A stretch of 64,000 nt of DNA. It comes from Microbulbifer flavimaris (GTDB lineage: Bacteria; Pseudomonadota; Gammaproteobacteria; Pseudomonadales; Cellvibrionaceae). Shown one piece after another: positions 23,675 to 44,231 of the stretch. The stretch lies in contig NZ_LRFG02000001.1 of NCBI RefSeq assembly GCF_001641755.2, forward strand, positions 620,001 to 684,000. Reading direction: 5' to 3'. Position 1 is the stretch's first letter. Each line of letters begins with the position of its first letter. The translations under genes and the position numbers were made by a program. A model generated the notes under the pieces. It was given only the letters and a program-made list of their open reading frames with translations. It did no database searches and was not told the origin of the DNA.

Positions 23675-24214
23675 TCAGCGGTTCCGGAGGAGAAATTCTT
23701 TGGCCGCATTGATACGGGCCGCCAGGTAGTCATTTCCGCCGCGATCCGGATGCAGCTTCTGAATCAGCCTGCGGTGGGCGGCGATGATCTCATCCCGGGT
23801 CGCCCCTTCATTGATATCCAGGATCTTGCAGGCCTCCGCCGTGGTCATCGGCTGGTTCTGCTGCTGGGCATCGCTGTCATGTCTGCCACCCTCGCGATCC
23901 TGGCCGCTTTCCTGCTGCTCTTGCTTCTGCCGTTGCCGGGCCTGTGCCCGCTGGGCGATCAGTGGGGCGATCCAGGGGAGGTGACGGCCGAGCCAGCGCA
24001 GGGTGGTGCCGAGCACAGGCAGTACCAGCGCCACGGCAGCGCCGACCCAGTGCAGGCGGCCGGTAATTGCCAGCAGCACTGCCAGCAGGGCCACGGCGAT
24101 CAGGGACCATTGCAGCAGCAGTTTGCGGCGCTGGTGGGGCGGGGTCGCCTCGAACTTGCGCCAGGCAACCAGCGCGAATATGCCGAGAGCAATCAGCAGG
24201 ATAATTCTGGCCAC
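23675..24214 (-). CDS. Membrane-anchored J-domain protein (Tim14/DjlA-like)
   Basis: 179 residues with a GTG start at 24214 behind AAGGAAG. Two or three N-terminal membrane helices ([39 protein letters not shown]) are followed by a Gln/Arg/Glu-rich linker. A compact J domain closes the protein, with the HPD motif in [15 protein letters not shown] and then [12 protein letters not shown]. That ending closely resembles the Tim14/Pam18 J domain of mitochondrial import. It probably recruits DnaK to the inner membrane. Convergent with cmoM. Confidence 0.87.
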
Positions 24215-24254
24215 AGGTTCGGCTTCCTTCTTTGTACACCCGGGCCGTAGGTTA

Positions 24255-25541
24255 TCAGATGTCGACGCGGAAACCGACGGCAATCACGTCGCCGGAAAAA
24301 ATGCGCCCGATTCTGTTGCTGTCGTCGATGGTGTTTTCCGTGTAGAGGGTCACCCGCTCGTTCCACTGGTATTGGAAGCCCAGGTAGTACTTGCGCAGCC
24401 GGAAGGAGTTGGCATCGATCAGGGCCGCCTCAAACTGCGCGTCGTCCGAGCGCAGGTAATTGTGCCCGCCGTAAACCGAGTAACAGTCTTTGGCTCCCCA
24501 TGTATAGGTAATGATTGACTCGGAACCCTTGGCATTGAAAAAGTTGTCAATGGAGTCTACCAATCCAGGCGGTGCCAGCTGGTTATTATGTGAATGCTGG
24601 TAAACGAGGGCGCCGTAAAACCCCTGCTGGTAAGGGCCCTTGCCATAGTTGACACCGGCAACCCAGGCCCAGGCATTGCTGCTGGCGGTGATATGGAAGT
24701 CGCTGATAACCAGTTCCGGATTGAGGGGATCGCTGATGTCGAAAACACGGCCGCGTGTACTTTCAATGTCCAGCTTCATCCGGTTATAGGCCGTACCGAA
24801 TTGCAGGCCGTCGCCCACGTTGGCCCGGTAGGTCATAGAGATGCTGTGGCCAAGCCCGAACTCGCAATCCCCGTCCGGGCAGACAATTTCGGTATTTTCG
24901 GGCTCGAGACCCTCGATGCCCAGGTCCACGCCGACGACATTCAGCTCCAGGCTCTGGGTGTGGGCCTGATACTGTAGCCCCAGCTGGAATTCACCGCCGA
25001 AGAGATCCCAGCGCCGGCGCCAGCTGATGGCGCTGTCGGCGCGCCCGGTGCCGAGGACGCCGCCGTCGGTGTTCAGTGAATAGGCGCCGCTGGCCAGCCC
25101 ACCGGAAATTTCATACCAGTCAGTCCAGCCGGCCACGTCGTAGTAGACGGCCCATTGCTTGCCCAGGACGAAGTCGCCCCAGCAGTCGTGCTTGGCGAAG
25201 CCGTGACCCTGACGCAGGAACAGGGACAGGTCCCGGTCGCCGAAGGAGGCCTGCTGGTTACCCTGGATCAATAGCGGTGAGGCGGAGGAGATGGCCCGGA
25301 CACCCCACTCGAGGTTGAAGCCGGTATCCCAGTCTCCGTAAGCGGGCACGTTGAGGCCCAGCCGGAGTCTCGACGCGCCATCGCGCATTTCTGTGTCTCC
25401 TCCAGCGTTCACCTGGTTGGCGCTGAAGTAGCCAGACATGTAGAGCGTCACTTCGCCGGATTCATAAATCGGCACAGCGCTGACCTGTGGCGCTGCCGCA
25501 ATCAGAACTCCAGCCAGGCAGATTCTTAATCTTGCGTGCAT
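24255..25541 (-). CDS. Outer-membrane porin (general Gram-negative porin type)
   Basis: 428-residue beta-barrel protein. The start [22 protein letters not shown] is a signal peptide. The mature part begins [20 protein letters not shown], typical of porin strand 1, then shows alternating strands with aromatic girdles ([49 protein letters not shown]). Two cysteines in a loop (CPDGDCEF) may form a disulfide. It ends GFRVDI rather than in aromatic Phe. Substrate is unknown. An in-frame GTG a few codons upstream is an alternative start, because the ribosome-binding site sits very close to this ATG. Confidence 0.82.
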
Positions 25542-25706
25542 TCCCTTGTCCACAATTGCTCTCGTGCTCGGCCTGTGCACGATTTTCCAAGTTGATTTTG
25601 GAATTAAAGGTAGACCAAGCCACTGGAAAACGTGTTCACAGGCGATACACTTGCGCCACTTGGCACTGTATTTTGAACCGCAAGCATCGAGGGGGCGTAA
25701 CAAAGA

Positions 25707-26336
25707 ATGTCGAGTTCGAATCACACGCGGCAATTGTTTGGTTTGACGGTGCGACAGAATGCCCACACAGACATGCGTCGCCTGCGACGGGAAGCCGGGG
25801 AGCCCAGTCTCCACGGGAATAAATTCTGGAAAAGTTCCTGCCTGACGATGGACTACCTGAAGAAGCACCCGTTGAAACCGGGGGCGAGGGTACTGGATCT
25901 GGGTTGTGGCTGGGGGCTGGGTGGTATCTTCTGTGCCAAACGGTTCGGCGCCCGGGTCACCGGCCTGGATGCGGACCCCAGTGTATTTCCGTTTGTGCAC
26001 TACCATGCGCAGCTGAATGGCGTATCGGTGGAGACCTGGCGTTGTCGCTATGAACGGGTGAGCAGTGACGATCTGTCCCGTTTTGACGCAGTAATCGGTA
26101 CCGATATTTGTTTCTGGGACAAGCTGGAGGCGCCACTCTACAATTTGACACGCCGCGCCCTGAAAGCGGGGGTGGGCCGTATCCTGCTGGCAGATCCCGG
26201 CCGATCGCCCTTCCGGCGGCTGGCGGAACGTGCGGAAGAAAAGCTGGGAGCAGAGTATCGGGAGTGGGAGGTACGCCAGCCAATGAAGGCCAGTGGATGT
26301 CTGATGATTGCCGGCGAGACCGGCGCTAGAGGTTAA
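25707..26336 (+). CDS. Class I SAM-dependent methyltransferase
   Basis: 209-residue methyltransferase. The SAM site is [29 protein letters not shown]; the post-motif reads [13 protein letters not shown], with the acidic/aromatic pattern of lysine or small-molecule N-methyltransferases (METTL/Nicotinamide-MT type). The preceding [16 protein letters not shown] is common in that group, so a protein substrate is possible. Two bases separate it from msrA, so the pair is co-transcribed. The target is unknown. Confidence 0.85.
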
Positions 26337-26338
26337 CA

Positions 26339-26968
26339 ATGCAATACGACAAGTTTCAAATGCCCTGCGCGGACCAGATTTTGCCGGGGCGTCCGGAGCC
26401 CATGGACATCACCAATGAACATTTCGTCAATGGCAATCCGCTCAAGGGCCCGTTCCCCGAGGGCATGAAGGCAGCCATCTTCGGCATGGGTTGTTTCTGG
26501 GGTGCGGAACGGCTGTTCTGGGAGATGGACGGCGTTTACTCCACTGCCGCCGGGTACTCGGACGGGTGCACGGAAAACCCCAATTACGACGAAGTGTGCA
26601 GTGGGCGCACCGGTCACGCGGAGGTAGTGCTGGTGGTTTACGATCCGGCAAAGATCAGTTACGACGACCTCCTGCAGGCATTCTGGGAGAATCACGACCC
26701 CACCCAGGGGATGCGCCAGGGCAATGACCTGGGCACCCAGTACCGGTCCTGCATTTTCTGCTTCGATGAAGAGCAGTTGGCTCAGGCCAAGAAAAGCAAA
26801 GAGGCTTTCCAGCAGGCCCTGACGGAAAAAGGGCTTGGCGAAATCACCACAGAAATCGCCATGTCCAACCCTTTTTACTATGCCGAGGACTATCACCAGC
26901 AATATCTGGCGAAAAACCCGGAGGGCTATTGTGGACTGGCGGGGACCGGTGCCTGCCTGATGCGGTGA
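26339..26968 (+). CDS. msrA: Peptide methionine sulfoxide reductase MsrA
   Basis: 209-residue reductase for methionine-S-sulfoxide. The catalytic Cys52 is in [12 protein letters not shown]. Downstream are [51 protein letters not shown], and the resolving-cysteine region [13 protein letters not shown] near the C-terminus. The 40-residue N-terminal extension matches E. coli-type MsrA. It follows a methyltransferase gene by 2 bp and ends at a strong bidirectional terminator. Confidence 0.95.
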
Positions 26969-27042
26969 CAGCGCAAGGCTATCGGCGCGATCGAAGCCCC
27001 TGATGCCTCGTTAGACTGGGGCACAGAAGAGTTGATCGATAT

Positions 27043-27083
27043 AAAAAAGCGCGCAGCCTGATTATTGGGCTGCGCGCTTTTTT
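27043..27083. terminator. Bidirectional rho-independent terminator between msrA and sseA
   Basis: AAAAAAGCGCGCAGCC and GGCTGCGCGCTTTTTT form a 16-bp stem around a 9-base loop. A runs on one flank and T runs on the other serve both convergent genes. Confidence 0.95.
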
Positions 27084-27107
27084 GTTTGGTGATCGCGAGA
27101 GGGGAGC

Positions 27108-28016
27108 CTACGGCAGGTTATCCGATTCGGCCGGCACAGCGGTGTCGGTCGGCGCCACTTGCTCGGCAAACGGATAGAGGACGTGGGCGCACCAGTCGCT
27201 CCAGCTTCCGGGGTAGAGCAGTCCGTCCCGGCGGCCAATCCGGTGCTGAACAAACAGGTTTACACAGGCGGTAACGCCAGAGCCGCAGTAGTGAACCAGC
27301 GGTTCCTCGCTGGGCAGGTCGCGCCAGAGGTGCTTGAGTTCTTCGACAGTCTTGAGGCTGCCATCCTCATTGGTGGCAGATTGCCAGGGCTTGTTGACGG
27401 CCCCGGGAATATGTCCGGCAATCGGGTCGATCGCCTCCTGGTGACCGGCAAACCGGGCGGGCTCGCGCGCATCCACCAGGCGCCAGGGCGGATTGCCCAC
27501 CCGGCCATAGACAGAGTCATAGTGCACGGTTGCCATCTCACCGGCCCGGGCAGTGAAATCTCCGGCCCGCGCGGGAAAGTGACCGGCGCCGGATTCCAGC
27601 GGCAGGCCGGCACGCTGCCAGGCGGAGAAACCACCGTCGAGTACTGACACTGACTCGTGGCCAAAGTAGCGCAGTAGCCACCAGGCCCGGGCAGCGAAGG
27701 CGAGGCGCTGATCGTCATAGACCACCACGTGCGTCTTTTCATCGATGCCCATACGGCGGGCAAAAGCCTGGAAGTGTTCAGGCGAGGGCAGGGGGTGGCG
27801 TCCACCGAAGCGCTGCACTGGTCCGGACAGGTCATCATCAAGACCGGCGTAGAGTGCGCCGGGAATATGGCCGGCGGCAAACTGTCGGCTTCCCGCCTCA
27901 GGTTCGGCCAGGTCAAAGCGGCAATCCAATAGCACAGGCGGCCGGGCACCTCGAGTGCCAGACGAACGCAGAGCATCGGCCAACTCTGCCACTGAAATCA
28001 CTGGGTCTCTCGTCAT
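27108..28016 (-). CDS. sseA: 3-mercaptopyruvate sulfurtransferase SseA
   Basis: 302-residue protein with two rhodanese domains. The N-terminal inactive domain runs through VLLDCRFDL, HIPGALYAGLDDDLS and VLDGGFSAWQRAGLP. The C-terminal domain has GHIPGAVNKPW and the active-site loop CGSGVTA, the mercaptopyruvate-type loop rather than thiosulfate-type. It moves sulfur from 3-mercaptopyruvate to acceptors such as cyanide or thiols. It is the surviving sulfurtransferase of the duplicated porin-glutaminase-sseA unit; a 5' remnant of its duplicate lies at 29960-30264. Confidence 0.95.
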   Translation of the reverse strand: MTRDPVISVAELADALRSSGTRGARPPVLLDCRFDLAEPEAGSRQFAAGHIPGALYAGLDDDLSGPVQRFGGRHPLPSPEHFQAFARRMGIDEKTHVVVYDDQRLAFAARAWWLLRYFGHESVSVLDGGFSAWQRAGLPLESGAGHFPARAGDFTARAGEMATVHYDSVYGRVGNPPWRLVDAREPARFAGHQEAIDPIAGHIPGAVNKPWQSATNEDGSLKTVEELKHLWRDLPSEEPLVHYCGSGVTACVNLFVQHRIGRRDGLLYPGSWSDWCAHVLYPFAEQVAPTDTAVPAESDNLP

Positions 28017-28149
28017 GGGGCGCTGGGCTCCCGTCGCTCTTTTAGTCTTTAGGTGACCCAAATTAAGCGGATTTAGTGCCGGTGTCCAGCGTGGATCGAC
28101 GGAGGGGAAGGCTGTCTGGGGAGTCGTGTGGCGGGGGCGGGGCGGCCGG

Positions 28150-28464
28150 TATGCTGTTGTTTCAGCGGCATGACTGCACAGGGGGGGCACACAGCGGGTT
28201 GGAGATATCGGCAATGGCTCTCTGCGGACAGATACCATTCCCCGCCGTACTCTTGACCAGCGCTCAAGGTGCGGCATGCGTTCGCTACTCTTCAAGGCCG
28301 GAGGGCCAGTGGAGTCCTGCTAGGCCCGATCCGGGCGCCCTGTATCGAGTTGTGCGCCATGGTATCCGCAGGGGGTGCAATACCGCGAGAATAATGGCAA
28401 GCCGCCCACAGCAGCTCCGGACCGGCAAGACCATGCAGTGACAGCAAGATTCATGGCCGGGTAT
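28150..28464 (-). pseudogene. Glutaminase remnant (internally deleted duplicate)
   Basis: This stretch aligns by eye with both ends of the intact glutaminase gene at 30418-31476. The segment around 28150-28260 matches its 3' end, sharing GTTGGAGATATCGGCAA. The segment around 28405-28464 matches its 5' end, sharing AGCAGCT, CCATGCAG and ATCTCAATC. About 740 bp of the middle is missing and no open frame survives. It sits between a porin and sseA, exactly where the intact copy sits between porin and sseA remnant in the other unit. Confidence 0.8.
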
Positions 28465-28465
28465 C

Positions 28466-29740
28466 TCAATCCCCTCTCAGAGTGATATCAAACATGTACT
28501 TGAAGGAAAGCTGGACGCGGAAGTCATTTGAGCGGAAGCTGTCGCGAGCGTTCTCCCGTTGGGCGTAGATGAGTTCCGGGCCCAGAAGCACGTTGTCTGT
28601 CGGGTGGTAGATCAGGTTCACCGAGGCGTATTCACCTTTCTCGAAAGCAGAGTCTAGCTGTCCATCGGTGGTATTGATTTTTAGGGATGAATACCCCACC
28701 GATGAAGTCCACTGCTTGTTCCAGTTGACGTCCAGGTAAGCCATCAGGCCTAGCATCGGCAATGCTTCGCCGGTGATGGGGGTAACTGGGTTGTCGAAGT
28801 TGTTAACGATGCCAATGTCGGCAGGAGCATCGTTCATATAGTTCTGGACTCCTTCGCCATAAACGACGGCCAGGTGCAGAACCGTGTAATCCATTTTGAT
28901 GTTGGATGTGACGTTGATTCCCCATCCGGTTTCCTCGCCGCTCAGATCGAATTCATCGACCAGAATATCTTCCCACTCAATGCGGCGCACAATACCTGCC
29001 AGCTGCAAATGCCCCCAGGGCGCTTCAGCGCGGTACTGCATGGAGAGATCCGGGTAGCGGAAATGGCCACGTATTCCCTCCAGCTCGATCCGCTCATCGT
29101 AAGGGCTCAAGTCACGGCTGGCTCCCGGCCGCTCAAGAGCGAGTGCAAAGTGTGAGCCTCCATCGCGCCATGGTGTCCAGCGTAACTGAATATTGCGGAA
29201 AAAGACGATTCCGTTAGGGCCCCAGTACTCGATGGTATTGGGAAAGGTGCTGGCGTCCATGAACAGGCTGTCTGACTGGCCCGCGCCAAATTGGCAGAAT
29301 TCAGCCCAGGCGTACCTCAGGTGAAACGCGGTTTCGCCTGCATCCGGCCCGAATCCAAACATGTCGTACTCAAAACGCGTTTTGATTTCCCCACATGGGG
29401 TCTGCGAGATGCCCTCAAAGCCGATACGGCTCTGGCGAACCCCCGTGTAATACTTTCCATCGGGCTCATATTCGCCATCAAAAGAGGGCAGTTGTGTGGG
29501 CCTTACTACATCGAAGGACTGCGGGTTGTTTGTATATTTCTGGTAGCCCATATCCAGCACGATATTGGAGTAGAAGCTGAGTTCCGGTGCGCTGAAAAAA
29601 ACCGATTCGGTAGCATCGCCAGCCACGGTGGCAATGGGCATCGCGACTGTGAAGAGAGTGGTGAAAAGAGATGGGCGTATGGGCGGCGACATCAAATTGC
29701 TTATGCGCGGCTGCTTTTTCCTGGTTGCAGAGATGAGCAT
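28466..29740 (-). CDS. DcaP-like outer-membrane porin, copy A
   Basis: 424-residue porin of the DcaP family. The start is ATG at 29740 behind AAGGATG. A long signal region ends near VAGDATES. Family landmarks are VVRPTQLPSFDGEY, GVRQSRIGFEG, GEIKTRFEYDMFGFG, FPNTIEYWGPNGIVFFRN and ALERPGASRD. DcaP proteins take up dicarboxylates and other negatively charged solutes. It is the same length as copy B at 31478-32752 and similar throughout; both share ETGWGINVTSNIKM. In copy A the GAGQT motif reads GAGQS. Downstream on its strand is the glutaminase remnant, then sseA. Confidence 0.88.
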   Translation of the reverse strand: MLISATRKKQPRISNLMSPPIRPSLFTTLFTVAMPIATVAGDATESVFFSAPELSFYSNIVLDMGYQKYTNNPQSFDVVRPTQLPSFDGEYEPDGKYYTGVRQSRIGFEGISQTPCGEIKTRFEYDMFGFGPDAGETAFHLRYAWAEFCQFGAGQSDSLFMDASTFPNTIEYWGPNGIVFFRNIQLRWTPWRDGGSHFALALERPGASRDLSPYDERIELEGIRGHFRYPDLSMQYRAEAPWGHLQLAGIVRRIEWEDILVDEFDLSGEETGWGINVTSNIKMDYTVLHLAVVYGEGVQNYMNDAPADIGIVNNFDNPVTPITGEALPMLGLMAYLDVNWNKQWTSSVGYSSLKINTTDGQLDSAFEKGEYASVNLIYHPTDNVLLGPELIYAQRENARDSFRSNDFRVQLSFKYMFDITLRGD

Positions 29741-29959
29741 GGATACATCCTTGTAGTCGCGCTCTCGCATTCGACTTTCACATCAGGGCGGTGCAGTCTT
29801 TCACGGCACTGTAACCAACCATTGCATTGACTGCGCGGGCAGTAGCGAACAAGTTTAGCTTCGTAAGTGCAACATAGGTGCCTACTGGTGCTGAGCGGCG
29901 CCCATTCCAATTAATGGATGGCAGAGCCGACTGAATCGATCCGGTCAGTGTCACGCAAG
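29741..29959. other. Duplication junction and leader of porin copy A
   Basis: The first ~130 bp upstream of the porin match the region upstream of porin copy B (for example TGACTGCGCGGGCAGTAGCG against TGACTTTGCGGGCAATAGCG). Beyond about 29890 the similarity ends and the sseA remnant begins. The join between the two duplicated units therefore lies here. No gene is present. Confidence 0.55.
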
Positions 29960-30264
29960 AGTTGGCCATTGCGGCAGGCAGCCGCGGAGGCAGACATTCC
30001 CAGCCGGGCGGCCGAGACATGTAGACGGCTCCGGCGAAGGCAGGTGGAGGCCTATTGGAGCGCCGAACCACCTCGGGCAAATCATCGTCGGGATTTGGGG
30101 GAGCCTCCGGCAATATGACAGGCGACATACTGGCACCGGCCGGCCGCAGGCGCTGCGAGATTGAAGGGGTAGCCCGATAAGACTGGTGGCTGCGCACTGC
30201 GGCTGTTGGACGTTCGCAAAGTCTCGGCGAGCTCTGCTACTGAAACCACTGTATCTCTCGTCAT
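29960..30264 (-). pseudogene. sseA remnant (truncated duplicate)
   Basis: The frame from ATG 30264 reads MTRDTVVSVAELAETLRTS, nearly the start of the intact SseA (MTRDPVISVAELADALRSS), and continues with PPVLSGYPFNLAAPAAGR and VACHIAGG against its VLLDCRFDLAEPEAG and AAGHIPGA. It then shifts frame; a second frame carries PDDDLPEVVRR, matching LDDDLSGPVQR. Similarity fades near 29960 and roughly two thirds of the gene, including the catalytic domain, is missing. Confidence 0.82.
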
Positions 30265-30417
30265 GGGCACCTGTTTCCCGTCACTTTTTTTAGTCTTTAC
30301 CTGACCCAAATGAAGCGGATTTGGTGCCGGTGTCCAGTGCGGATCGACGGAGGGGAAGGCTGTCCGGGTAGTCGTGCGGCGGAGGTGGGGCGGCCGGTTT
30401 GCCCGGCCGCCTGAGTG

Positions 30418-31476
30418 CTACTGCTTCATTGGCATGACCGCATAGGGGTTGCCGCCCAGGGCGTTGGAGATATCGGCAATTGCCTTCTGCGCACGGACGC
30501 TGTTGCCGGCTTCATCCAGGGGCGGAGAGATGACGGCAATGCCGAAGTTGCCCGGGGAAACCGCGATGATGCCGCCACCAACGCCACTCTTGCCGGGGAG
30601 GCCGGTGCGCCACAGCCACTTGCCGGAATCATCATAGAGGCCCGCCGTGGCCATGACCGCAAGCAGCTTGGGCACATTGTCTGGTTTCAAGACGGTCTTC
30701 TTCGACACCGGGTTCACGCCGCCATTGGCGAGGGTGCCAGCCATGGTGGCGAGATCCTTGGCGTTGACGCTGATAGAGCATTGCTCCGTGTAGATGTCAG
30801 TGGCCTGCATCGGGTTATCCTCAATGTAGTTGTAAGCGTACATGAGCATGCCGATGGCCTGGTTGCGCTGGTTGGTGTCCGACTCGGACTTGAAAACCTC
30901 TTCATTGACGGACAGCTTGCGACCGGCAAAGTCGGAGTAGTAAGACAGGATGCTGTTAAAGATATCGTCGCGGCTGTTGCCCTTGACCATGCTGGTGGCA
31001 GCAATAGCGCCAGGGTTCACCAGCGGATTCATCTCCGGCCCGCCAAATGCCTGCTTGGACATCTCGATCGAGACGATGGAGTTGAAGCGCATACCGGTGG
31101 CATCCGCGCCAATGGTGTTGAAGATTTTGTCCGGGCCAGACTCTTCCATGACCTTGGCGGCGGTAAAGACCTTGGAGATGGACTGAATCGAGACCTCGGA
31201 CTTCACATCCCCGGCGGTGTAAACCTTGCCATCCGGCGTCACCAGTGCGATGCCGTAAATATTGGAATCCACCTCCGCCAGCACGGGAATGTAATCCGCG
31301 TTCGCCCCCTCTTTTAGGCCCTTGTATTTCTCGTAGGCGCGATCCAGGGCCGCCTGAATCTGCTTGGGTTCCATGGCGGTCGCGGGGATGCAGAGTAACC
31401 CGGCGAAAACAAAGGCCAGCAGCTTCAGGCTAATCAAGCCATGCAGCCTTGAAAGGAACAACCGTGGGTGAATCAT
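30418..31476 (-). CDS. glsA: Glutaminase (GlsA family) with signal peptide
   Basis: 352-residue serine-dependent beta-lactamase-fold glutaminase, converting glutamine to glutamate and ammonia. A hydrophobic leader (LKLLAFVFAGLLCIPATAM) suggests export to the periplasm, unusual for this family. The SxxK motif is S99-I-S-K102 in VSIQSISKVFTAA. NPLVNPGAIA, YNYIEDNP, TMAGTLANGGVNP and GKSGVGGGI are family hallmarks. Its ATG is 1 bp from the stop of porin copy B, so porin and glutaminase are co-transcribed. Followed on its strand by the sseA remnant. Confidence 0.93.
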   Translation of the reverse strand: MIHPRLFLSRLHGLISLKLLAFVFAGLLCIPATAMEPKQIQAALDRAYEKYKGLKEGANADYIPVLAEVDSNIYGIALVTPDGKVYTAGDVKSEVSIQSISKVFTAAKVMEESGPDKIFNTIGADATGMRFNSIVSIEMSKQAFGGPEMNPLVNPGAIAATSMVKGNSRDDIFNSILSYYSDFAGRKLSVNEEVFKSESDTNQRNQAIGMLMYAYNYIEDNPMQATDIYTEQCSISVNAKDLATMAGTLANGGVNPVSKKTVLKPDNVPKLLAVMATAGLYDDSGKWLWRTGLPGKSGVGGGIIAVSPGNFGIAVISPPLDEAGNSVRAQKAIADISNALGGNPYAVMPMKQ

Positions 31477-31477
31477 C

Positions 31478-32752
31478 TCAATCTCCTCTCAGGGTCATAT
31501 CAAACATGTATTTAATGGAAAACTGGACACGGAAATCGTGGGAGCGGAAGCCGTCCCGCGCGTTCTCACGCTCGGCGTACTGTAGTTCCGGGCCGAGGAA
31601 GACCTTGTCAGTCGGGTGATACAGCAGGTTGACCAGCGCGTACTCGCCTTTCTCAAAGGCCTCGTCCAGCTGGCCGTCAGTGGTGTTGATGTCGAGGCTG
31701 GAATAGCCGATGGTGGAGGTCCATTGTTTGTTCCAGTTCACATCGAGGAAGGCGCTCAGCCCAAGCATTGGTAGCGCCTCACCGGTAATGGGTGTCACGG
31801 GGTTGTCCGGCTGCAGTACCGCACCGATGTCCGCCGGTGCGTCATTCATGTAGTTCTGTACACCCTCGCCGTAGACCACTCCCAGCTTCGCCACGGTGTA
31901 GCCCATCTTGATGTTGGAGGTGACATTGATACCCCAGCCGGTCTCGTCGCCACTGAGATCGAATTCGTCGTCGAGAATGTCCTCCCACTCGATCCGGCGG
32001 ACAATACCGGCCACCTGCAGGTAGCCCCAGTCGGCGCCAGCGCGGTAGTGTGCAGCGATATCCGGCCAGCGCAGGTGTGGGCGGATGTTCTGCAGTTCGA
32101 TGCGGTCTTCATAGGGGGTGAAATCGCGGCTGGCGCCCGGCCGCTCTATCGAAATCGCGAAGCTCGAATCGTCCTCCTGCCACGGCGTCCAGCGCAGCTG
32201 TACGTTGCGGAAGAACACCATGCCGCTCGGCCCCCAGTACTCAACGGAGTTGGGGAAGATGTCCGGGTCCATGAACACGCTCCACGTCTGGCCCGCACCC
32301 ACCTGGCAGAACTCGCCCCAGGCATGGCGGAGGCGGAACGTGGTCTGGCCGGCGTCGTCACCGACGCCAAACATTTCGTACTCGAAATGGGTTTTCACTT
32401 CTCCGCAGGGCGTCTGCGATGTGCCCTTGAAACCCATGCGGCTCTGGCGCACACCCTGGAACCACTTGCCATCGGGCTCGTATTCCTCCTCGAAAGCTGG
32501 CAGTCGTGTCGGTCGGACGACATCGAACCAGTCGGGATCGTTGGTGTATTTCTGGTAACCGGCATCCAGCATGATATTCGTGTAGAGGTTGACCTCGGGA
32601 GGACTGAAGTAACCAGGCGTGCCATCATCACCGGCCAGGCCGACGAGCGGCATCGCGGTTGCGATAAGTGCTGTGATTGCAGTGGGACCTTTACGCGAAG
32701 GAGCCAGGTAGCTTCTGCGCGAATGCTTTGGCTTGGTTGCAGAGACGAGCAT
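31478..32752 (-). CDS. DcaP-like outer-membrane porin, copy B
   Basis: 424 residues, the paralogue of copy A. The start is ATG at 32752 behind AAGGATG. Landmarks are VVRPTRLPAFEEEY, GVRQSRMGFKG, GEVKTHFEYEMFGVG, FGLRHAW-type FRLRHAWGEFCQVGAGQTW, FPNSVEYWGPSGMVFFRN and ERPGASRD. The C-terminal strand ends FDMTLRGD, as in copy A. Directly coupled to the periplasmic glutaminase, which suggests uptake of amino-acid amides or related organic acids; that is inference. The gene heads the upstream unit of a tandem duplication. Confidence 0.9.
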   Translation of the reverse strand: MLVSATKPKHSRRSYLAPSRKGPTAITALIATAMPLVGLAGDDGTPGYFSPPEVNLYTNIMLDAGYQKYTNDPDWFDVVRPTRLPAFEEEYEPDGKWFQGVRQSRMGFKGTSQTPCGEVKTHFEYEMFGVGDDAGQTTFRLRHAWGEFCQVGAGQTWSVFMDPDIFPNSVEYWGPSGMVFFRNVQLRWTPWQEDDSSFAISIERPGASRDFTPYEDRIELQNIRPHLRWPDIAAHYRAGADWGYLQVAGIVRRIEWEDILDDEFDLSGDETGWGINVTSNIKMGYTVAKLGVVYGEGVQNYMNDAPADIGAVLQPDNPVTPITGEALPMLGLSAFLDVNWNKQWTSTIGYSSLDINTTDGQLDEAFEKGEYALVNLLYHPTDKVFLGPELQYAERENARDGFRSHDFRVQFSIKYMFDMTLRGD

Positions 32753-33079
32753 GGGTACATCCTTGTAATCGAGCTTTCGCTTGCGACTTTCAGTGAAATG
32801 CGGCGCTGCTTTTCCCTGCGGCGCCCCCTGATGTCGCAGTGACTTTGCGGGCAATAGCGTGACAAGTGTAGATCTGTAATTGGTGCGTATGTCCCAAAAA
32901 GGGCTGGCCGGCGCTCTGTTCAAAATTTTTGAAGGTGGAGCTGACAAAATTGCATGGGCCAGATAGCGGGAAGGTGCCGGGCAGGGGGGGCAAGGGGGAA
33001 GGCGCAGGCGCTTAAGCGGCTCTCACTGCATATAACGCCAGGGCACATATGGTGCCCTGGCGCAAAAAATATAATGGCT
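32753..33079. other. 327-bp intergenic region with an 11-bp perfect hairpin
   Basis: The left part is the porin copy B leader and promoter region. At 33036-33062 CGCCAGGGCAC pairs perfectly with GTGCCCTGGCG around a 5-base loop, just past the stop of the minus-strand TAP-like hydrolase. The A-rich run is on the wrong side for a classical minus-strand terminator, but the hairpin probably still marks the end of that transcript. No gene seen. Confidence 0.5.
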
Positions 33080-34783
33080 TCAGGGCGTTTTTTCCCTGGC
33101 GGGCGAGGGCACAGATTCCTGGCCCCCCTTGATCACAGGCGGTGGTGAATGTCGCGGGGTGGCTTCGTGCTCCGCTTCACCCTGTGCTTCAGTTGCCTCA
33201 CCGGCCTGTAGCGCCAGCTCTTCTTTTCGACAGGCAAAGGTCTGTTCCGAGACCTGTGCGGCGGGGTCGTCGAGGAACTTCGCGGCGGCCTCCTCGGCGC
33301 AGTTACTTGCGGAAATCACATCGTGTGCCAGCTGTGGGAAAAGCAGCCACTGATGATTGGGCAACGCGGCGCGGGCTTTTTCCGCATCCTCCGCATCGAG
33401 CACCGGGTCCAGCGCACCGTGAAGAATCAGCGTTGGGACCTCGGCAGCGATGGCCTCGGCTTCCAGGGGGCCAGCGGGCGGGATGGCCCAGATACGGCAT
33501 TGCAGTTGCATCAGTTCGAGATCCGCGCGCACCGCACTGCCGAGAATGCCGGTGTCGTCCGCTTTGCGGCGTGCCTCCTCGAAGTCGACAAAGGGAGCCT
33601 CCTCGAAGCAGAAATGGCTGATGCCTGCTGCGTCACCAAAATACGGATCGAGAATGATCGCCATGAAATGATTCACTGCGTCCCGCGCCGGTGCGGGATC
33701 GCCCTTTTCCAGCCCCTCGATAACCGCCGGCAATTCCGGGTAGAAGCCCTCGTCGTAAAGCGCCTGGAACAACACACGCAACAGCCGCTGGCCGGTCATG
33801 GCAAAGGGGAATTCTCCATCGGCATAGGGATGCTCGATGGGCACGGTTACCGGCGCCTCATCCAGCTTCTCCACCAGGCTTTCCAGTCGCTGGCGCAGGT
33901 TTGGATAGCGGCTGGCGCAGAGCTTGTCTTCGCTGCAGAAGTTGAGACCGCGGAAATAGGCGGATTGGGAATCCTCAGCCAGTTGCTGGATGTAGGGGAT
34001 GTCGGGAAATACGGCACTGTTCAGCACCAGCGCTCGTACGGAATCGGGAAAGTCCCGGGCCAGCGTCAGGGCATAGCGGGAAGCGTAAGAGACACCGTAC
34101 AGGTTCATCTGCTCCACCCCGAGCGCCTTGCGCAGTGCCTCGATGTCTTGCGCGACGGCGCTGCTGTTGTAGTGGGCAAGATCCGCTTTCTCGCTCAGGC
34201 GGCTGTAGCAGCGTTCGAGGCTGTGACTGAAAACCCGGGCCTCTTCATCGGCCGTCAGGGGCCTCTGGAATGCGGTCGTCGCATCCTCGATAAACTCGGT
34301 ACAGGCAAGCCTGGGTTCCGCCATGCCGGTACCACGGGGGTCAATCACGATCAGGTCACGTCCGTTTTCCACGGTCATGGTGGCGTAGTTGATCCACAGC
34401 CACTCACTGGCATTTTCCGGTTCCAGGCCCATGCTCGCGCCGGGGCCGCCCGCGCCGAGGTGTAAAAGCGGGAACTTGTCGGGATTTTGGTCGTTGGCCA
34501 TAAAGCGCACCACCGGGAAGCGGATTTTACGCCCCTGGGGTTTCTCGTGATTCTCTGGCACTTCCATCATGAAGCACTGGGTAATCGGCCAGCTGTTGTC
34601 GGCCTCGAACCAGCAGGGCCGCGCCTGCAGCTGTGACTCGGGGTCAGCATCCCCGTCCGCCGGCTCACCGCGGTTACAGGCCGCCAGAACGGGCAGGGTG
34701 ATGACCAGGAGCAGGGCTTTCAATGGAAGCGGATAATTCACTACGGGATTCCGTGTCCGGCGCGGTTGCGCGCTGTTAACCAT
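33080..34783 (-). CDS. Lipoprotein alpha/beta hydrolase, TAP-like/proline iminopeptidase type
   Basis: About 567 residues from ATG 34783; a GTG at 34741 would give a tighter signal peptide. The lipobox is in VITLPVLAAC. The catalytic Ser is in NLYGVSYASRYALTLARDFP (GxSxS form), the Asp in LILHGALDPVLDAEDA and the His in LFPQLAHDVIS. DPRGTGMAEPRLAC is the usual oxyanion neighbour of tripeptidyl-aminopeptidase-like enzymes, and the TAP C-terminal domain follows. The last 60 residues are Glu/Ala/Pro-rich. Probably a periplasm-facing peptidase or esterase anchored by lipid. Its start overlaps the end of the TRIC-type gene. Confidence 0.88.
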   Translation of the reverse strand: MVNSAQPRRTRNPVVNYPLPLKALLLVITLPVLAACNRGEPADGDADPESQLQARPCWFEADNSWPITQCFMMEVPENHEKPQGRKIRFPVVRFMANDQNPDKFPLLHLGAGGPGASMGLEPENASEWLWINYATMTVENGRDLIVIDPRGTGMAEPRLACTEFIEDATTAFQRPLTADEEARVFSHSLERCYSRLSEKADLAHYNSSAVAQDIEALRKALGVEQMNLYGVSYASRYALTLARDFPDSVRALVLNSAVFPDIPYIQQLAEDSQSAYFRGLNFCSEDKLCASRYPNLRQRLESLVEKLDEAPVTVPIEHPYADGEFPFAMTGQRLLRVLFQALYDEGFYPELPAVIEGLEKGDPAPARDAVNHFMAIILDPYFGDAAGISHFCFEEAPFVDFEEARRKADDTGILGSAVRADLELMQLQCRIWAIPPAGPLEAEAIAAEVPTLILHGALDPVLDAEDAEKARAALPNHQWLLFPQLAHDVISASNCAEEAAAKFLDDPAAQVSEQTFACRKEELALQAGEATEAQGEAEHEATPRHSPPPVIKGGQESVPSPAREKTP

Positions 34784-35396
34784 GGTTGCCAAACCGGGCG
34801 ATGGGAGCCGACAGGTTCCATCGCAATGCGGCGAGGCGTATGGATAAAGTTACCAGGATCGCAATGGCGACCACTATCTCGCCCGGCAGTGTACCGCTGG
34901 CGTCGAGCAATACCAGTGCCGCGGCGCCGCTCAGGGCGGCAGTGGCGTAGATCTCCCGGCGCAACAGCAGCGGAATGTCCCCGGCGAGAAGATCGCGGAT
35001 CAGGCCTCCGAAAGTGCCGGTCATGACACCCATCACGATAGCGATGGCAGCGGAATGGCCCAAACCGAGCACCTTCTGGGTGCCGATGACCACAAACACT
35101 GCGAGCCCCATGGCGTCGGCGATCTTCAGCAGGCGCATGGGCACCTGCAGATAGCGAATCAGGTAAAAGCTCACCACCCCGGTCGCCGAGGCGAGCCAGA
35201 GATAATGGGTGTCCTGCAGCCAGAAGACCGGCACGTTGAGAATCATGTCCCGCAGTGTGCCGCCACCGGTGGCTGTGACGCAGGCCAGAACCACCGCCCC
35301 GAACAGGTCCATCTGCTTGTGGCCCGCTGCCAGGACGCCGGAGAAGGCGAAGACCACAATGCCGATCAGGTCGCACCAGAAAAGCAGCTGTTCCAT
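34776..35396 (-). CDS. TRIC/UPF0126-family membrane protein (YadS/YicG-like)
   Basis: 206-residue integral membrane protein with seven hydrophobic helices arranged as two repeats. Each repeat has a GG-R-D signature: TATGGGTLRDMILNVPVFW and GTFGGLIRDLLAGDIP. Bacterial members are homologues of trimeric intracellular cation channels, and some are linked to glycine or amino-acid transport. The stop codon lies just inside the reading frame of the downstream hydrolase, so the two are likely coupled. Confidence 0.93.
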   Translation of the reverse strand: MEQLLFWCDLIGIVVFAFSGVLAAGHKQMDLFGAVVLACVTATGGGTLRDMILNVPVFWLQDTHYLWLASATGVVSFYLIRYLQVPMRLLKIADAMGLAVFVVIGTQKVLGLGHSAAIAIVMGVMTGTFGGLIRDLLAGDIPLLLRREIYATAALSGAAALVLLDASGTLPGEIVVAIAILVTLSIRLAALRWNLSAPIARFGNHG

Positions 35397-35537
35397 AGGA
35401 GCCTGCGGGATCTCGATTTAGGGGTAGGGAGTGTTGGATCGCTGATGGTAGAGGGGGAACCGGCGCCTGTCACCTGCAGGCGCCGGAGGGGCAGGCGGGC
35501 CGCTCCACGCGGCCGGCTGCCCGCTGTCGGCGTTTGT

Positions 35538-36722
35538 TTAGAAGAACGCCTGCAGGCCGGTCTGCGCGCGGCCGAGGATCAGGGCGTGTACGTCGTGGGT
35601 GCCCTCATAGGTGTTTACCGCTTCCAGGTTCATTACATGGCGGATCACGTGGAACTCGTCGGCGATACCGTTACCGCCGTGCATGTCGCGGGCGACACGG
35701 GCGATATCCAGGGCCTTGCCACAGTTGTTGCGCTTGACCAGGGAAATCATGGTGGGATCGAAGTCTTTCGCCTCGTCCATGATACGCCCGACCCGGAGGG
35801 ACGCCTGCAGGCCCAGGGTGATCTCTGTCTGCATGTCAGCGAGCTTTTTCTGGAACAGCTGCGTCTGTGCCAGCGGGCGATCGAACTGTTTGCGGTCGAG
35901 ACCGTACTGGCGCGCGGCGTGCCAGCAGAACTCCGCGGCGCCGATGGCACCCCAGGAAATGCCGTAACGGGCGCGGTTCAGGCAGCCGAACGGCCCACGC
36001 AGGCCGCCGATATCGGGGAACTTGTTCTCTTCCGGCACGAATACGTTATCCATGACGATTTCGCCGGTGATGGAGGCACGCAGGGAGAACTTGCCCTCAA
36101 TCTTGGGCGCGCTCAGGCCTTCCATGCCCTTGTCGAGGATGAAGCCGCGGATGATGCCTTCGTCGTCTTTTGCCCAGACCACGAATACATCAGCGATCGG
36201 GCTGTTGGTGATCCACATCTTGGCACCGCTGAGGCGGTAGCCGCCGTCCACCTTCTTGGCGCGGGTCTTCATGCCGCCGGGATCGGAACCGGCATCCGGC
36301 TCAGTCAGGCCAAAACAGCCGACCCACTCACCGGTAGCCAGCTTGGGCAGGTATTTCTCTTTCTGCGCTTCGCTGCCGTAGGCAGAGATGGGGTACATGA
36401 CCAGGCTGGACTGGACGCTCATGGCGGAGCGGTAGCCGGAATCCACGCGTTCTACCTCGCGGGCAACCAGGCCATAGGAAACGTAATTGAGGCCGGCGCA
36501 ACCGTAGCCTTCGATGGTGGAACCCAGCAGTCCCAGCTCGCCCATTTCGCTCATGATTTCGCGGTGGAACACTTCGTGCCGGTTGGCCTCGAGAATGCGC
36601 GGCATAAGCTGCGACTGACAGTATTCACGCGCGGTATCACGGACCATGCGCTCTTCGTCGCTGAGCTGCTGATCCAGCAGCAGGATGTCGTCCCAGTGGG
36701 CGAGGGGTTGATGCTTGCTCAT
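35538..36722 (-). CDS. gcdH: Glutaryl-CoA dehydrogenase
   Basis: 394-residue FAD enzyme that oxidises and decarboxylates glutaryl-CoA to crotonyl-CoA in lysine/glutarate breakdown. Features are [71 protein letters not shown], and the C-terminal [24 protein letters not shown] with catalytic Glu in [18 protein letters not shown] is diagnostic of the glutaryl subfamily. A CaiB-type CoA-transferase that could supply the substrate lies at 49.7 kb rather than next door. Confidence 0.95.
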
Positions 36723-42955: not shown

Positions 42956-44125
42956 CTAATCCCTACGCAACTCGTCCTTGATGGCGATGGGGTTGGGGAA
43001 ATTCATCACCACGATGTAGGACGATACCAGGAAGGTGAGGATTGCGGTTGCCTGGATCAGGTGTGATGCGCCGCTGCCAATCAGTTGCTGGCTGGTGGCG
43101 AGGAACGCAATCAACAGGGAGAACTCGCTGATCTGGCCAAGGCGGAAACCGAGATCCCATGCCAGCACTTTCTGCCCGCTCTGGCTGCCCAGTAAAAAGC
43201 GGAAAACCAGTGGCTTCACCACCAGGACCGCGGCCGCGGTAATGAGCGCCGGCAGGGCGATTTCGGGCACCATCGAGAGCTTGAACTGGGCGCCAATACT
43301 GAAGAAAAACAGGATGAGGAAAAAGTCCCTCAGCGGCTTCAGGCTGAGCGCGATGTACTGAGAGATACGGCTGGTGGCCAGGGTAATACCGGCGATGAAA
43401 GCACCGATCTCCCGCGACAGGCCGAGAATTTCCGCCAGTTCCGCAAGCCCCATACACCATCCCAGTGCCAGCAGAAAAATATATTCGTGGAAGCGGTCGA
43501 AGCGGGTAAACAGCGGCAGCAAAACATATTTCACGGCCACCCAGGCCACCAGGACCAGCAGGGGCAGGGCGGCAAACGAAATACCCAGCTGGGCAAAATC
43601 CACCTGGCCGGTGCTGCCGCTCAAAAGAATCATCAGGCAGGCGATGGCGACGAAATCCTGGAACAGCAGTAAGCCCACCATCAACTCGCCCAGGTGTTTG
43701 TGGTGCAGCACCGTGGTAGGCAGCAACTTGATGCCGATGATGGTACTGGAAAACATCATCGCCATGCCGATCACCCAGGATTCCACAGTGGTAAAGCCGA
43801 ACAGGCGACCGAGACCGTAGCCCAGCCCCAGGAATACGGCGCAGCTGACAATGCCGACGAATGTGGCCTTGCGGATAACCGACATCAGTGCCTGGGGCTG
43901 CATGTCGAGCCCCAGCAGGAACAGCAGGAAAATAATGCCCACGGTGGACATGTCTGCGAGCAGCTGCACATTGTTCACCACCCCGAATACGGAGGGGCCA
44001 AGCAACACGCCGAGGGCAATATAGGCCACCAGCAGAGGCTGCCGGCCATAGAGCGCCAGGGTGGCAAGCAGGGCGGCGCCACTGAAAATCAGGAAGAAAG
44101 ATTGAAAGAGTGAGGTCTCCGCCAC
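42956..44125 (-). CDS. Monovalent cation:proton antiporter-2 (CPA2/KefB-like)
   Basis: 389-residue transporter with about 12 helices and no cytosolic TrkA-N domain. YIALGVLLGPSVFGVV, IIFLLFLLGLDMQPQALM, MMFSSTIIGIKLLPTTVLHHKHLGELMVGLLLFQDFVAIACLMIL and REIGAFIAGITLA are CPA2 landmarks; the FQD/FLLGLD acidic residues are the transport sites. The start is GTG with AAGGATG upstream. Convergent with the RND operon; the 12-bp gap leaves no room for separate terminators. Confidence 0.92.
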   Translation of the reverse strand: MAETSLFQSFFLIFSGAALLATLALYGRQPLLVAYIALGVLLGPSVFGVVNNVQLLADMSTVGIIFLLFLLGLDMQPQALMSVIRKATFVGIVSCAVFLGLGYGLGRLFGFTTVESWVIGMAMMFSSTIIGIKLLPTTVLHHKHLGELMVGLLLFQDFVAIACLMILLSGSTGQVDFAQLGISFAALPLLVLVAWVAVKYVLLPLFTRFDRFHEYIFLLALGWCMGLAELAEILGLSREIGAFIAGITLATSRISQYIALSLKPLRDFFLILFFFSIGAQFKLSMVPEIALPALITAAAVLVVKPLVFRFLLGSQSGQKVLAWDLGFRLGQISEFSLLIAFLATSQQLIGSGASHLIQATAILTFLVSSYIVVMNFPNPIAIKDELRRD

Positions 44126-44231
44126 AGCACATCCTTGTTCGCCGGCTTTATTCCATTATCCATACATGATGGCACGGCTGGAACCACCCCGGCAGGCGCG
44201 ATGGTTCCTTTTGGTTGCATGGACGGCGCGC

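What the first reader, a model, noticed from the sequence alone, without database searches (positions are those of the whole stretch)
27108..32752. Tandem duplication of a porin-glutaminase-sulfurtransferase unit with reciprocal gene loss
On the minus strand the order is porin B, intact glutaminase, sseA stub, porin A, glutaminase stub, intact sseA. The two porins have the same length (424 residues) and are similar throughout. The segments after sseA starts share a 23-bp perfect match (28094-28116 against 30342-30364), and the glutaminase stub retains both ends of the gene. The simplest history is one tandem duplication of a porin-glsA-sseA operon, then loss of glsA from one copy and sseA from the other, while both porins stayed. 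That leaves two porins free to diverge in function.
Basis: seen in the sequence. Interest (0 to 1): 0.75.

Follow-up and report, generated by a model that had tools for sequence, protein, structure and literature searches.

The report
Ancient tandem porin–glutaminase duplication, half decayed
A marine bacterium carries two tandem copies of an outer-membrane channel gene, only one of which still has its partner gene for a probably secreted glutamine-splitting enzyme; the duplication is real and old, and the channel–enzyme pairing recurs in related bacteria, which hints at a shared role in scavenging amides.

Summary
In detail: two co-linear units on the minus strand (about 32950-30007 and 29936-27108) share leader, porin, glutaminase ends, glsA-sseA spacer and sseA start. 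The genome is a Microbulbifer; two congeners carry one porin-glsA-sseA unit at the same place. Three parts of the interpretation change. (1) sseA was probably not lost: its stub is a one-ended fragment (nt 1-262) with no 3' remnant, as expected if the duplication ended inside sseA. glsA was truly lost from unit 2, by an internal deletion of about 785 nt. (2) The copies are probably not recent: the porin bodies are not sisters (AU p 0.012-0.020), although leader and spacer are closer between the copies than to the relatives, probably by gene conversion. (3) sseA is a resident gene: in 24 of 30 Microbulbifer loci examined it sits directly behind the peptidase gene, without porin. The wider result: in a sample of the order, all 20 other genomes with this DcaP-like porin hold a glutaminase, 18 of them within 2 kb on the same strand, and the linked glutaminases look secreted. 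I read it as an amide-scavenging porin-hydrolase pair. The porins' functions were not tested.

The parts
32753..32950 (-). leader of unit 1, homologous to the leader of unit 2
   Evidence: local alignment score 172 vs shuffle max 34; 66% u1-u2 vs 48-50% u1 to G012/G004 over 115 columns
31478..32752 (-). porin B, DcaP-like outer membrane porin, intact, 424 aa
   Evidence: PF19577 41.6 bits, cut-off 27; 86.0% and 84.4% aa identity to the single porin of G012 and G004
30418..31476 (-). glsA, glutaminase with a signal-peptide-like N terminus, intact, SxxK at residues 99-102
   Evidence: PF04960 340.8 bits; TIGR03814 344.3 bits over cut-off 255.4; motif; N terminus
30389..30411 (-). strong hairpin between glsA stop and sseA stub (no T run)
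   Evidence: -23.4 kcal/mol, z -4.0; not called by the terminator scan
30308..30336 (-). copy of the sseA promoter-like element, second hexamer altered (TCATTT)
   Evidence: read; compare
30007..30264 (-). sseA stub, nt 1-262 of sseA, frame closed after 60 codons
   Evidence: nhmmer E 3e-33, no further hit; translation
29937..30006 (-). junction between unit 1 and unit 2, about 70 nt without assigned homology
29741..29936 (-). leader of unit 2
28466..29740 (-). porin A, DcaP-like porin, intact, 424 aa
   Evidence: PF19577 57.6 bits; 71% identical to porin B
28278..28456 (-). glsA remnant, 5' end (nt 10-179)
   Evidence: nhmmer E 2.5e-10; score 75 vs shuffle max 39-42
28157..28247 (-). glsA remnant, 3' end (nt 965-1056); about 785 nt of glsA missing between the two remnants
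   Evidence: nhmmer E 4.7e-14
28040..28154 (-). glsA-sseA spacer tract, 90% identical to 30288-30402; probable gene-conversion tract
28060..28088 (-). conserved promoter-like element of sseA, TGGACA-N17-TAATTT
   Evidence: same pattern in 27 of 30 loci; not called by the sigma-70 consensus scan
27108..28016 (-). sseA-like rhodanese sulfurtransferase, intact, CGSGVTA at residue 244
   Evidence: PF00581; motif; NF008557 165.3 bits, under its cut-off of 250

Best explanation
History: the resident order in Microbulbifer is peptidase-sseA-msrA. In a few species a DcaP-like porin, in this strain and its two nearest relatives with a secreted-type glutaminase, sits between peptidase and sseA. In the ancestor of these three, a segment from the porin leader to about nt 262 of sseA was duplicated in tandem. 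The duplication itself left a truncated sseA at the end of the first copy. Later glsA was deleted internally in the second copy, and the two relatives probably collapsed back to one unit by recombination between the repeats. Leader and spacer were homogenised between the copies by gene conversion. Function (inferred): the porin admits small amides or acidic amino acids and the secreted glutaminase hydrolyses glutamine in the periplasm. One glutaminase can serve two porins because the periplasmic pool is shared, so its second copy was dispensable while a second, diverged channel was kept.
For: Self-match and co-linear order. 24 of 30 sseA loci have the peptidase directly upstream and no porin. 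One-ended sseA stub against two-ended glsA stub. AU test rejects porin A + porin B as sisters, p 0.020 and 0.012 on the porin body, 0.02 on the whole protein. Identity of unit 1 to unit 2 minus its identity to the nearer relative: leader +0.165 (CI 0.043 to 0.270), spacer +0.146 (0.066 to 0.219), porin from codon 61 on -0.109 (-0.137 to -0.084). Function: 20 of 20 other porin-bearing genomes of the order sample also hold PF04960, against 93 of 369 without the porin; 18 of 20 within 2 kb, on the same strand, in both gene orders (13 downstream, 5 upstream). The 21 linked glutaminases read (18 of them outside Microbulbifer) have a hydrophobic signal-peptide-like start. In 3 linked loci one gene lies between; the 2 tested are PF01425 amidases. 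In G047, G025 and G046 the porin's upstream neighbour is an amidohydrolase (PF04909 in the one tested) and glsA is absent from the locus.
Against: The collapse in G012 and G004 left no scar that I could find, so it rests on the tree alone; with first and second codon positions only, sisterhood is not rejected (p 0.061). Whether porin A belongs with the G047-clade porins or with the porin B group is open (p 0.23). Codons 1-60 and sseA nt 1-158 do not decide between the histories (differences 0.088 and 0.038, intervals include zero). Faster change on the branch to G012 and G004 in non-coding DNA could mimic conversion. Porin A has lower GC3 (0.649 against 0.751) and codon adaptation (0.588 against 0.690) than porin B, which would also fit a foreign body, though the window genes compared range 0.466-0.774. 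Two of 20 porin genomes have the glutaminase on another contig (G152, G283), and 4 sampled genomes have a secreted-type glutaminase without this porin. Substrate and periplasmic location were not tested; co-location counts are not phylogenetically independent.
Confidence: 0.6

Rival explanations
1. One reading: tandem duplication of the whole operon in this lineage, then separate loss of sseA from copy 1 and glsA from copy 2.
For: Leader and spacer are closer between the copies than to the relatives; two stubs exist; single units in relatives; sisterhood of the porins not rejected on first and second codon positions (p 0.061).
Against: Porin proteins are not sisters (p 0.012-0.020); no trace of sseA beyond nt 262.
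Confidence: 0.18
2. Recent tandem duplication followed by replacement of the porin A body with a diverged allele by homologous recombination from another species.
For: Mosaic pattern; lower GC3 and codon adaptation of porin A; porin A groups with the porin-sseA clade (G047, G025, G046) in outgroup-rooted trees, support 96/99 with four outgroups, 85/86 with nine.
Against: No match among 48 genus and 390 order genomes is clearly closer to porin A than porin B is; grouping with the G047 clade is not forced (p 0.23).
Confidence: 0.17
3. On the functional part: the porin-glutaminase linkage is inherited neighbourhood without functional meaning.
For: The linked genomes are related (one order); in a class-wide draw 0 of 368 other genomes hold such a porin at E 1e-30.
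Against: Both gene orders occur, across seven family codes, and other amide-hydrolase genes stand in or beside the pair.
Confidence: 0.3

Closest known systems
DcaP-family porins of Acinetobacter (PF19577; PDB 6eus)
   Same: Profile match over the curated cut-off; 6eus (DcaP-like protein) is the only solved sequence matched at E 0.01 or better, E 3.7e-7.
   Different: Acinetobacter DcaP porins are reported to serve di- and tricarboxylic acids (PMC12338516, abstract and passages seen) and to bear a periplasmic coiled coil of the first 60 mature residues (PMC6679007, passages seen). Here the best profile match starts at profile position 69 or later and the neighbour is a glutaminase.
Serine-type glutaminase GlsA/YbaS (PF04960)
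   Same: Full-length domain match, SxxK motif; best solved relative is E. coli YbaS, 1u60.
   Different: Has a signal-peptide-like N terminus. Of 22 glutaminases sampled from genomes without the porin, 16 fall under the hydrophobicity cut; of the 6 over it I judged two (L120, L127) non-secreted by eye.
Tandem duplication with decay and gene conversion of paralogues in bacteria (general knowledge; listing only)
   Same: Direct repeats, one intact and one broken copy of passenger genes, locally homogenised tracts.
   Different: Nothing essential; this is a well-preserved natural example.

Membership tests
DcaP porin family (PF19577) | Profile score over Pfam's gathering cut-off | tested here: met
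   41.6 and 57.6 bits, cut-off 27
DcaP porin family (PF19577) | Trimeric 16-stranded beta barrel | tested here: inconclusive
   AlphaFold2 models from 6-row alignments failed, mean pLDDT 28.3 and 26.1; no fold search was made
DcaP porin family (PF19577) | N-terminal periplasmic coiled coil of about 60 residues | tested here: inconclusive
   Best stretch begins at profile position 69 (porin A) and 115 (porin B); no coiled-coil predictor run
DcaP porin family (PF19577) | Uptake of di- or tricarboxylic acids | not testable with these tools
   needs growth or conductance assays
Glutaminase A (PF04960/TIGR03814) | Curated score cut-offs and SxxK motif | tested here: met
   340.8 of 27; 344.3 of 255.4; SISK at 99 (role of the motif recalled)
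SseA, 3-mercaptopyruvate sulfurtransferase equivalog (NF008557) | Score over 250 bits | tested here: not met
   165.3 bits; so called SseA-like only
SseA-like sulfurtransferases | CGSGVTA active-site loop | tested here: met
   residue 244 (motif recalled)
Reciprocal loss after whole-unit tandem duplication | Both genes once complete in both copies | tested here: inconclusive
   glsA yes, both ends present in unit 2; sseA in unit 1 has no 3' remnant

The most novel reading that the evidence does not exclude
DcaP-like porins of this subfamily are dedicated amide channels that work as a pair with a secreted glutaminase (or, by partner exchange, an amidase or amidohydrolase). The strain studied keeps two diverged channels feeding one shared periplasmic glutaminase, a case where a freely shared enzyme made its second copy dispensable while the channels were kept apart.
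Probability: 0.4. Interest if true: 0.55.

Novelty: new member of a known kind. Interest (0 to 1): 0.4.

Why it matters
The duplication is a clean natural record of how a tandem array decays: a breakpoint fragment, an internal deletion, probably converted tracts and retained channels can be read off. The recurrent porin-glutaminase linkage gives DcaP-like porins outside Acinetobacter a testable substrate class. I saw no paper on such a linkage in the listings (one search listed 12 of 27), which cover only openly licensed PMC papers.

Tried and rejected
Counting sites that unite the two copies against the two relatives was dropped as evidence: that split is the expected quartet both for old and for recent duplication. 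I used differences in identity with bootstrap intervals instead. Ka/Ks between the porins says little because dS is saturated (1.93). Structure prediction failed, so no fold search was made. GC3 and codon use did not decide for or against a foreign origin of porin A. Of 19 plasmid records with a match, the 10 listed cover 6-7% of the query at 64-66% identity, in the glsA part. By pairwise alignment the end of the sseA stub scored under the shuffle maximum against the window's sseA (43 against 49) and over it against G012's (48 against 39); the profile made it clear. A search for sseA and glsA remnants of a lost unit in the spacers of G012 and G004 found none. The L128 amidohydrolase is only a distant relative of the G047 one (25% over 158 aa), so a shared ancestral three-gene cassette is not shown. 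One search seemed to reject that the secreted-type glutaminases are one group (p 0.010); this was an artefact of my label, which had left out L082 (score 1.729, cut 1.73). With L082 in, the held tree scores better than the free one (p 0.68).

Selections and drops. Loci were fetched for 30 of the 47 genomes with a strong sseA match, the best-scoring ones. The comparison glutaminases are from 22 of 93 porin-free genomes, chosen by hand and leaning to low-scoring ones: 6 of 22 pass the hydrophobicity cut, 4 after I set L120 and L127 aside by eye. For every glutaminase the start codon giving the most hydrophobic N terminus was taken, which favours signal peptides in both groups alike. In one search L106 was left out (same gene as L044), and seven porin stretches without a glutaminase hit gave no row. 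Several porin rows (G004, G047, G025, G046) begin at the alignment start, not the start codon. In the pattern the second hexamer was fixed to TA-N3-T, so its A is not independently shown to be conserved. Positions were typed, on the footing that both drew the same 390 genomes.
Full report
What is there. On the minus strand the region reads porin B (31478-32752), glsA (30418-31476), an sseA stub (30264-30007), a junction of about 70 nt, porin A (28466-29740), a glsA stub in two pieces (28456-28278 and 28247-28157) and intact sseA (28016-27108). Self-comparison of 24000-36000 gives two long direct matches; the others listed are 41 nt or shorter. Leaders upstream of both porins match too.

Where it sits. 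The genome has 30 contigs and 3.64 Mb. Of 48 genus genomes (this one included), 39 have any match to porin B at E 0.001 and 6 have a close one (59% identity or more): this strain, G012, G004, G047, G025 and G046. G012 and G004 have one porin-glsA-sseA unit between the same peptidase gene and msrA; G047, G025 and G046 have amidohydrolase (PF04909 in the one tested)-porin-sseA there and no glsA. Glutaminases close to this glsA (89% or more) occur in 3 of 48 genomes.

The resident order. A strong sseA match is found in 47 of 48 genus genomes. In the 30 loci fetched, 24 have the peptidase gene directly upstream of sseA with no porin, and 23 of these 24 have msrA within the stretch; 6 have the porin. 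A TGGACA-N17-TA-N3-T element stands 47-76 nt before the aligned sseA start in 27 of 30 loci, with or without the porin. It is not called by a sigma-70 consensus scan, so it is promoter-like by conservation only. In the stub the second hexamer reads TCATTT. A hairpin of -23.4 kcal/mol (z -4.0) follows glsA in unit 1; G004 has a similar one (z -2.5), G012's fold is no better than shuffles, and in unit 2 the hairpin is gone. I conclude that sseA is an older neighbour, probably with its own expression, not a member of a three-gene operon.

How the stubs arose. A DNA profile of sseA from unit 2, G012 and G004 matches unit 1 from nt 1 to 262 and no further, with filters off. The glsA profile matches unit 2 at both ends (nt 10-179 and 965-1056) with about 785 nt missing. 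A tandem duplication whose end lies inside sseA yields a truncated sseA in the first copy and a full one in the second, in one step. That explains the sseA stub without a loss; glsA needs one later deletion. This is an inference from one-ended against two-ended remains.

How old it is. Porin B is 86.0% and 84.4% identical to the G012 and G004 porins; porin A is 70-71% identical to all three. In trees of the porin body with outgroups, holding porins A and B together costs 26 log units (AU p 0.020 with four outgroups, 0.012 with nine); whole proteins give 0.02 and first and second codon positions 0.061. Whether porin A is nearer the G047 clade is not settled (p 0.23). In leader and spacer, however, the two copies are closer to each other than copy 1 is to either relative; in the porin from codon 61 on the reverse holds; codons 1-60 and sseA nt 1-158 do not decide. 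Old duplication with later gene conversion in the flanks, and collapse in the relatives, explains all of this. Replacement of the porin A body from elsewhere is the main rival, and faster change in the relatives' non-coding DNA could account for part of the pattern.

Are both porins alive. Both are open over 424 codons. Between them dN is 0.193 and dS 1.934, the latter saturated. That is purifying selection, not free drift. At 75 aligned sites only porin A departs from a residue shared by porin B, G012 and G004; 16 of these change charge. No usable structure model was obtained.

What it may do. In 389 other genomes drawn from the order, 20 hold a porin like porin A (E at most 1e-40) and 113 hold PF04960 (E at most 1e-20). 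All 20 porin genomes hold PF04960, against 93 of the 369 others (Fisher p 5e-12, not corrected for kinship). In 18 of 20 the glutaminase lies within 2 kb on the same strand: 15 within 500 nt, 3 with one gene between. It is downstream in 13 and upstream in 5, over seven family codes. Of the three intervening genes two were tested and are PF01425 amidases. The two exceptions, G152 and G283, have class II aldolase-type neighbours and their glutaminase on another contig. The 21 linked glutaminases (3 of Microbulbifer, 18 others) begin with hydrophobic, signal-peptide-like stretches; of 22 sampled glutaminases from genomes without the porin 6 pass the same cut and 4 look secreted (a heuristic, not a signal-peptide program). 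Of those 4, one stands beside another porin type (PF13609, L108), one beside an amidase (L107), one beside a penicillin amidase (L125) and one beside an amidohydrolase (L128). In the quick glutaminase tree the secreted-type ones lie in one group of 29 rows that also holds two others; that they are one group is not rejected (p 0.68). In a class-wide draw 0 of 368 other genomes hold such a porin at E 1e-30. From this I infer a channel plus a periplasmic amide-splitting enzyme.

Known background. DcaP-family porins in A. baumannii are reported to be needed for growth on several di- and tricarboxylic acids (PMC12338516, a preprint; abstract and passages seen). Its main text has no occurrence of glutamine, glutamate or amidase (word search). 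The one paper found with DcaP, porin and glutaminase (PMC6679007, passages seen) names a DcaP-like protein and a glutaminase-asparaginase in a periplasmic proteome, and the passages do not link them.

Verdict. A real, probably old, partly decayed tandem duplication; ordinary in kind. The recurrent porin-glutaminase pairing is the part most worth a specialist's time.

Noticed in passing
L035:10697-11821, L036:5843-6967, L037:9218-10342: In three Microbulbifer genomes the porin is preceded by an amidohydrolase (PF04909 in the L035 protein; homologues by tblastn in the other two) and glsA is absent from the locus.
   Followed up: partly
L099, L100, L101: Amidase gene (PF01425 in L099 and L100; L101 not tested) between porin and secreted-type glutaminase; amidase or penicillin amidase also beside secreted-type glutaminases in L107 and L125.
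   Followed up: partly
28060-28088 and homologous places in L045-L074: TGGACA-N17-TAATTT-like element before sseA in 27 of 30 loci, with an altered second hexamer at the stub (30308-30336).
   Followed up: partly
27043-27083: 41-nt inverted repeat (88% self-complementary) with A and T runs between the convergent ends of sseA and msrA; looks like a two-way terminator.
   Followed up: no
42963-44132: ORF with GC3 of 0.38 against 0.65-0.80 for the other genes compared; a homologue is encoded in L037 (55%). Foreign gene or wrong reading frame.
   Followed up: no
24255-26339: Long minus-strand ORF whose C-terminal part is a Gram-negative porin (PF13609); its N-terminal part runs antisense to a plus-strand ORF at 25707-26336 that looks like a methyltransferase by eye (not tested), so the start is probably much further in.
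   Followed up: no
G000 C1:859612-860535 (L044, L106): A second glutaminase of this genome, 45-46% identical, without a signal-peptide-like start.
   Followed up: partly
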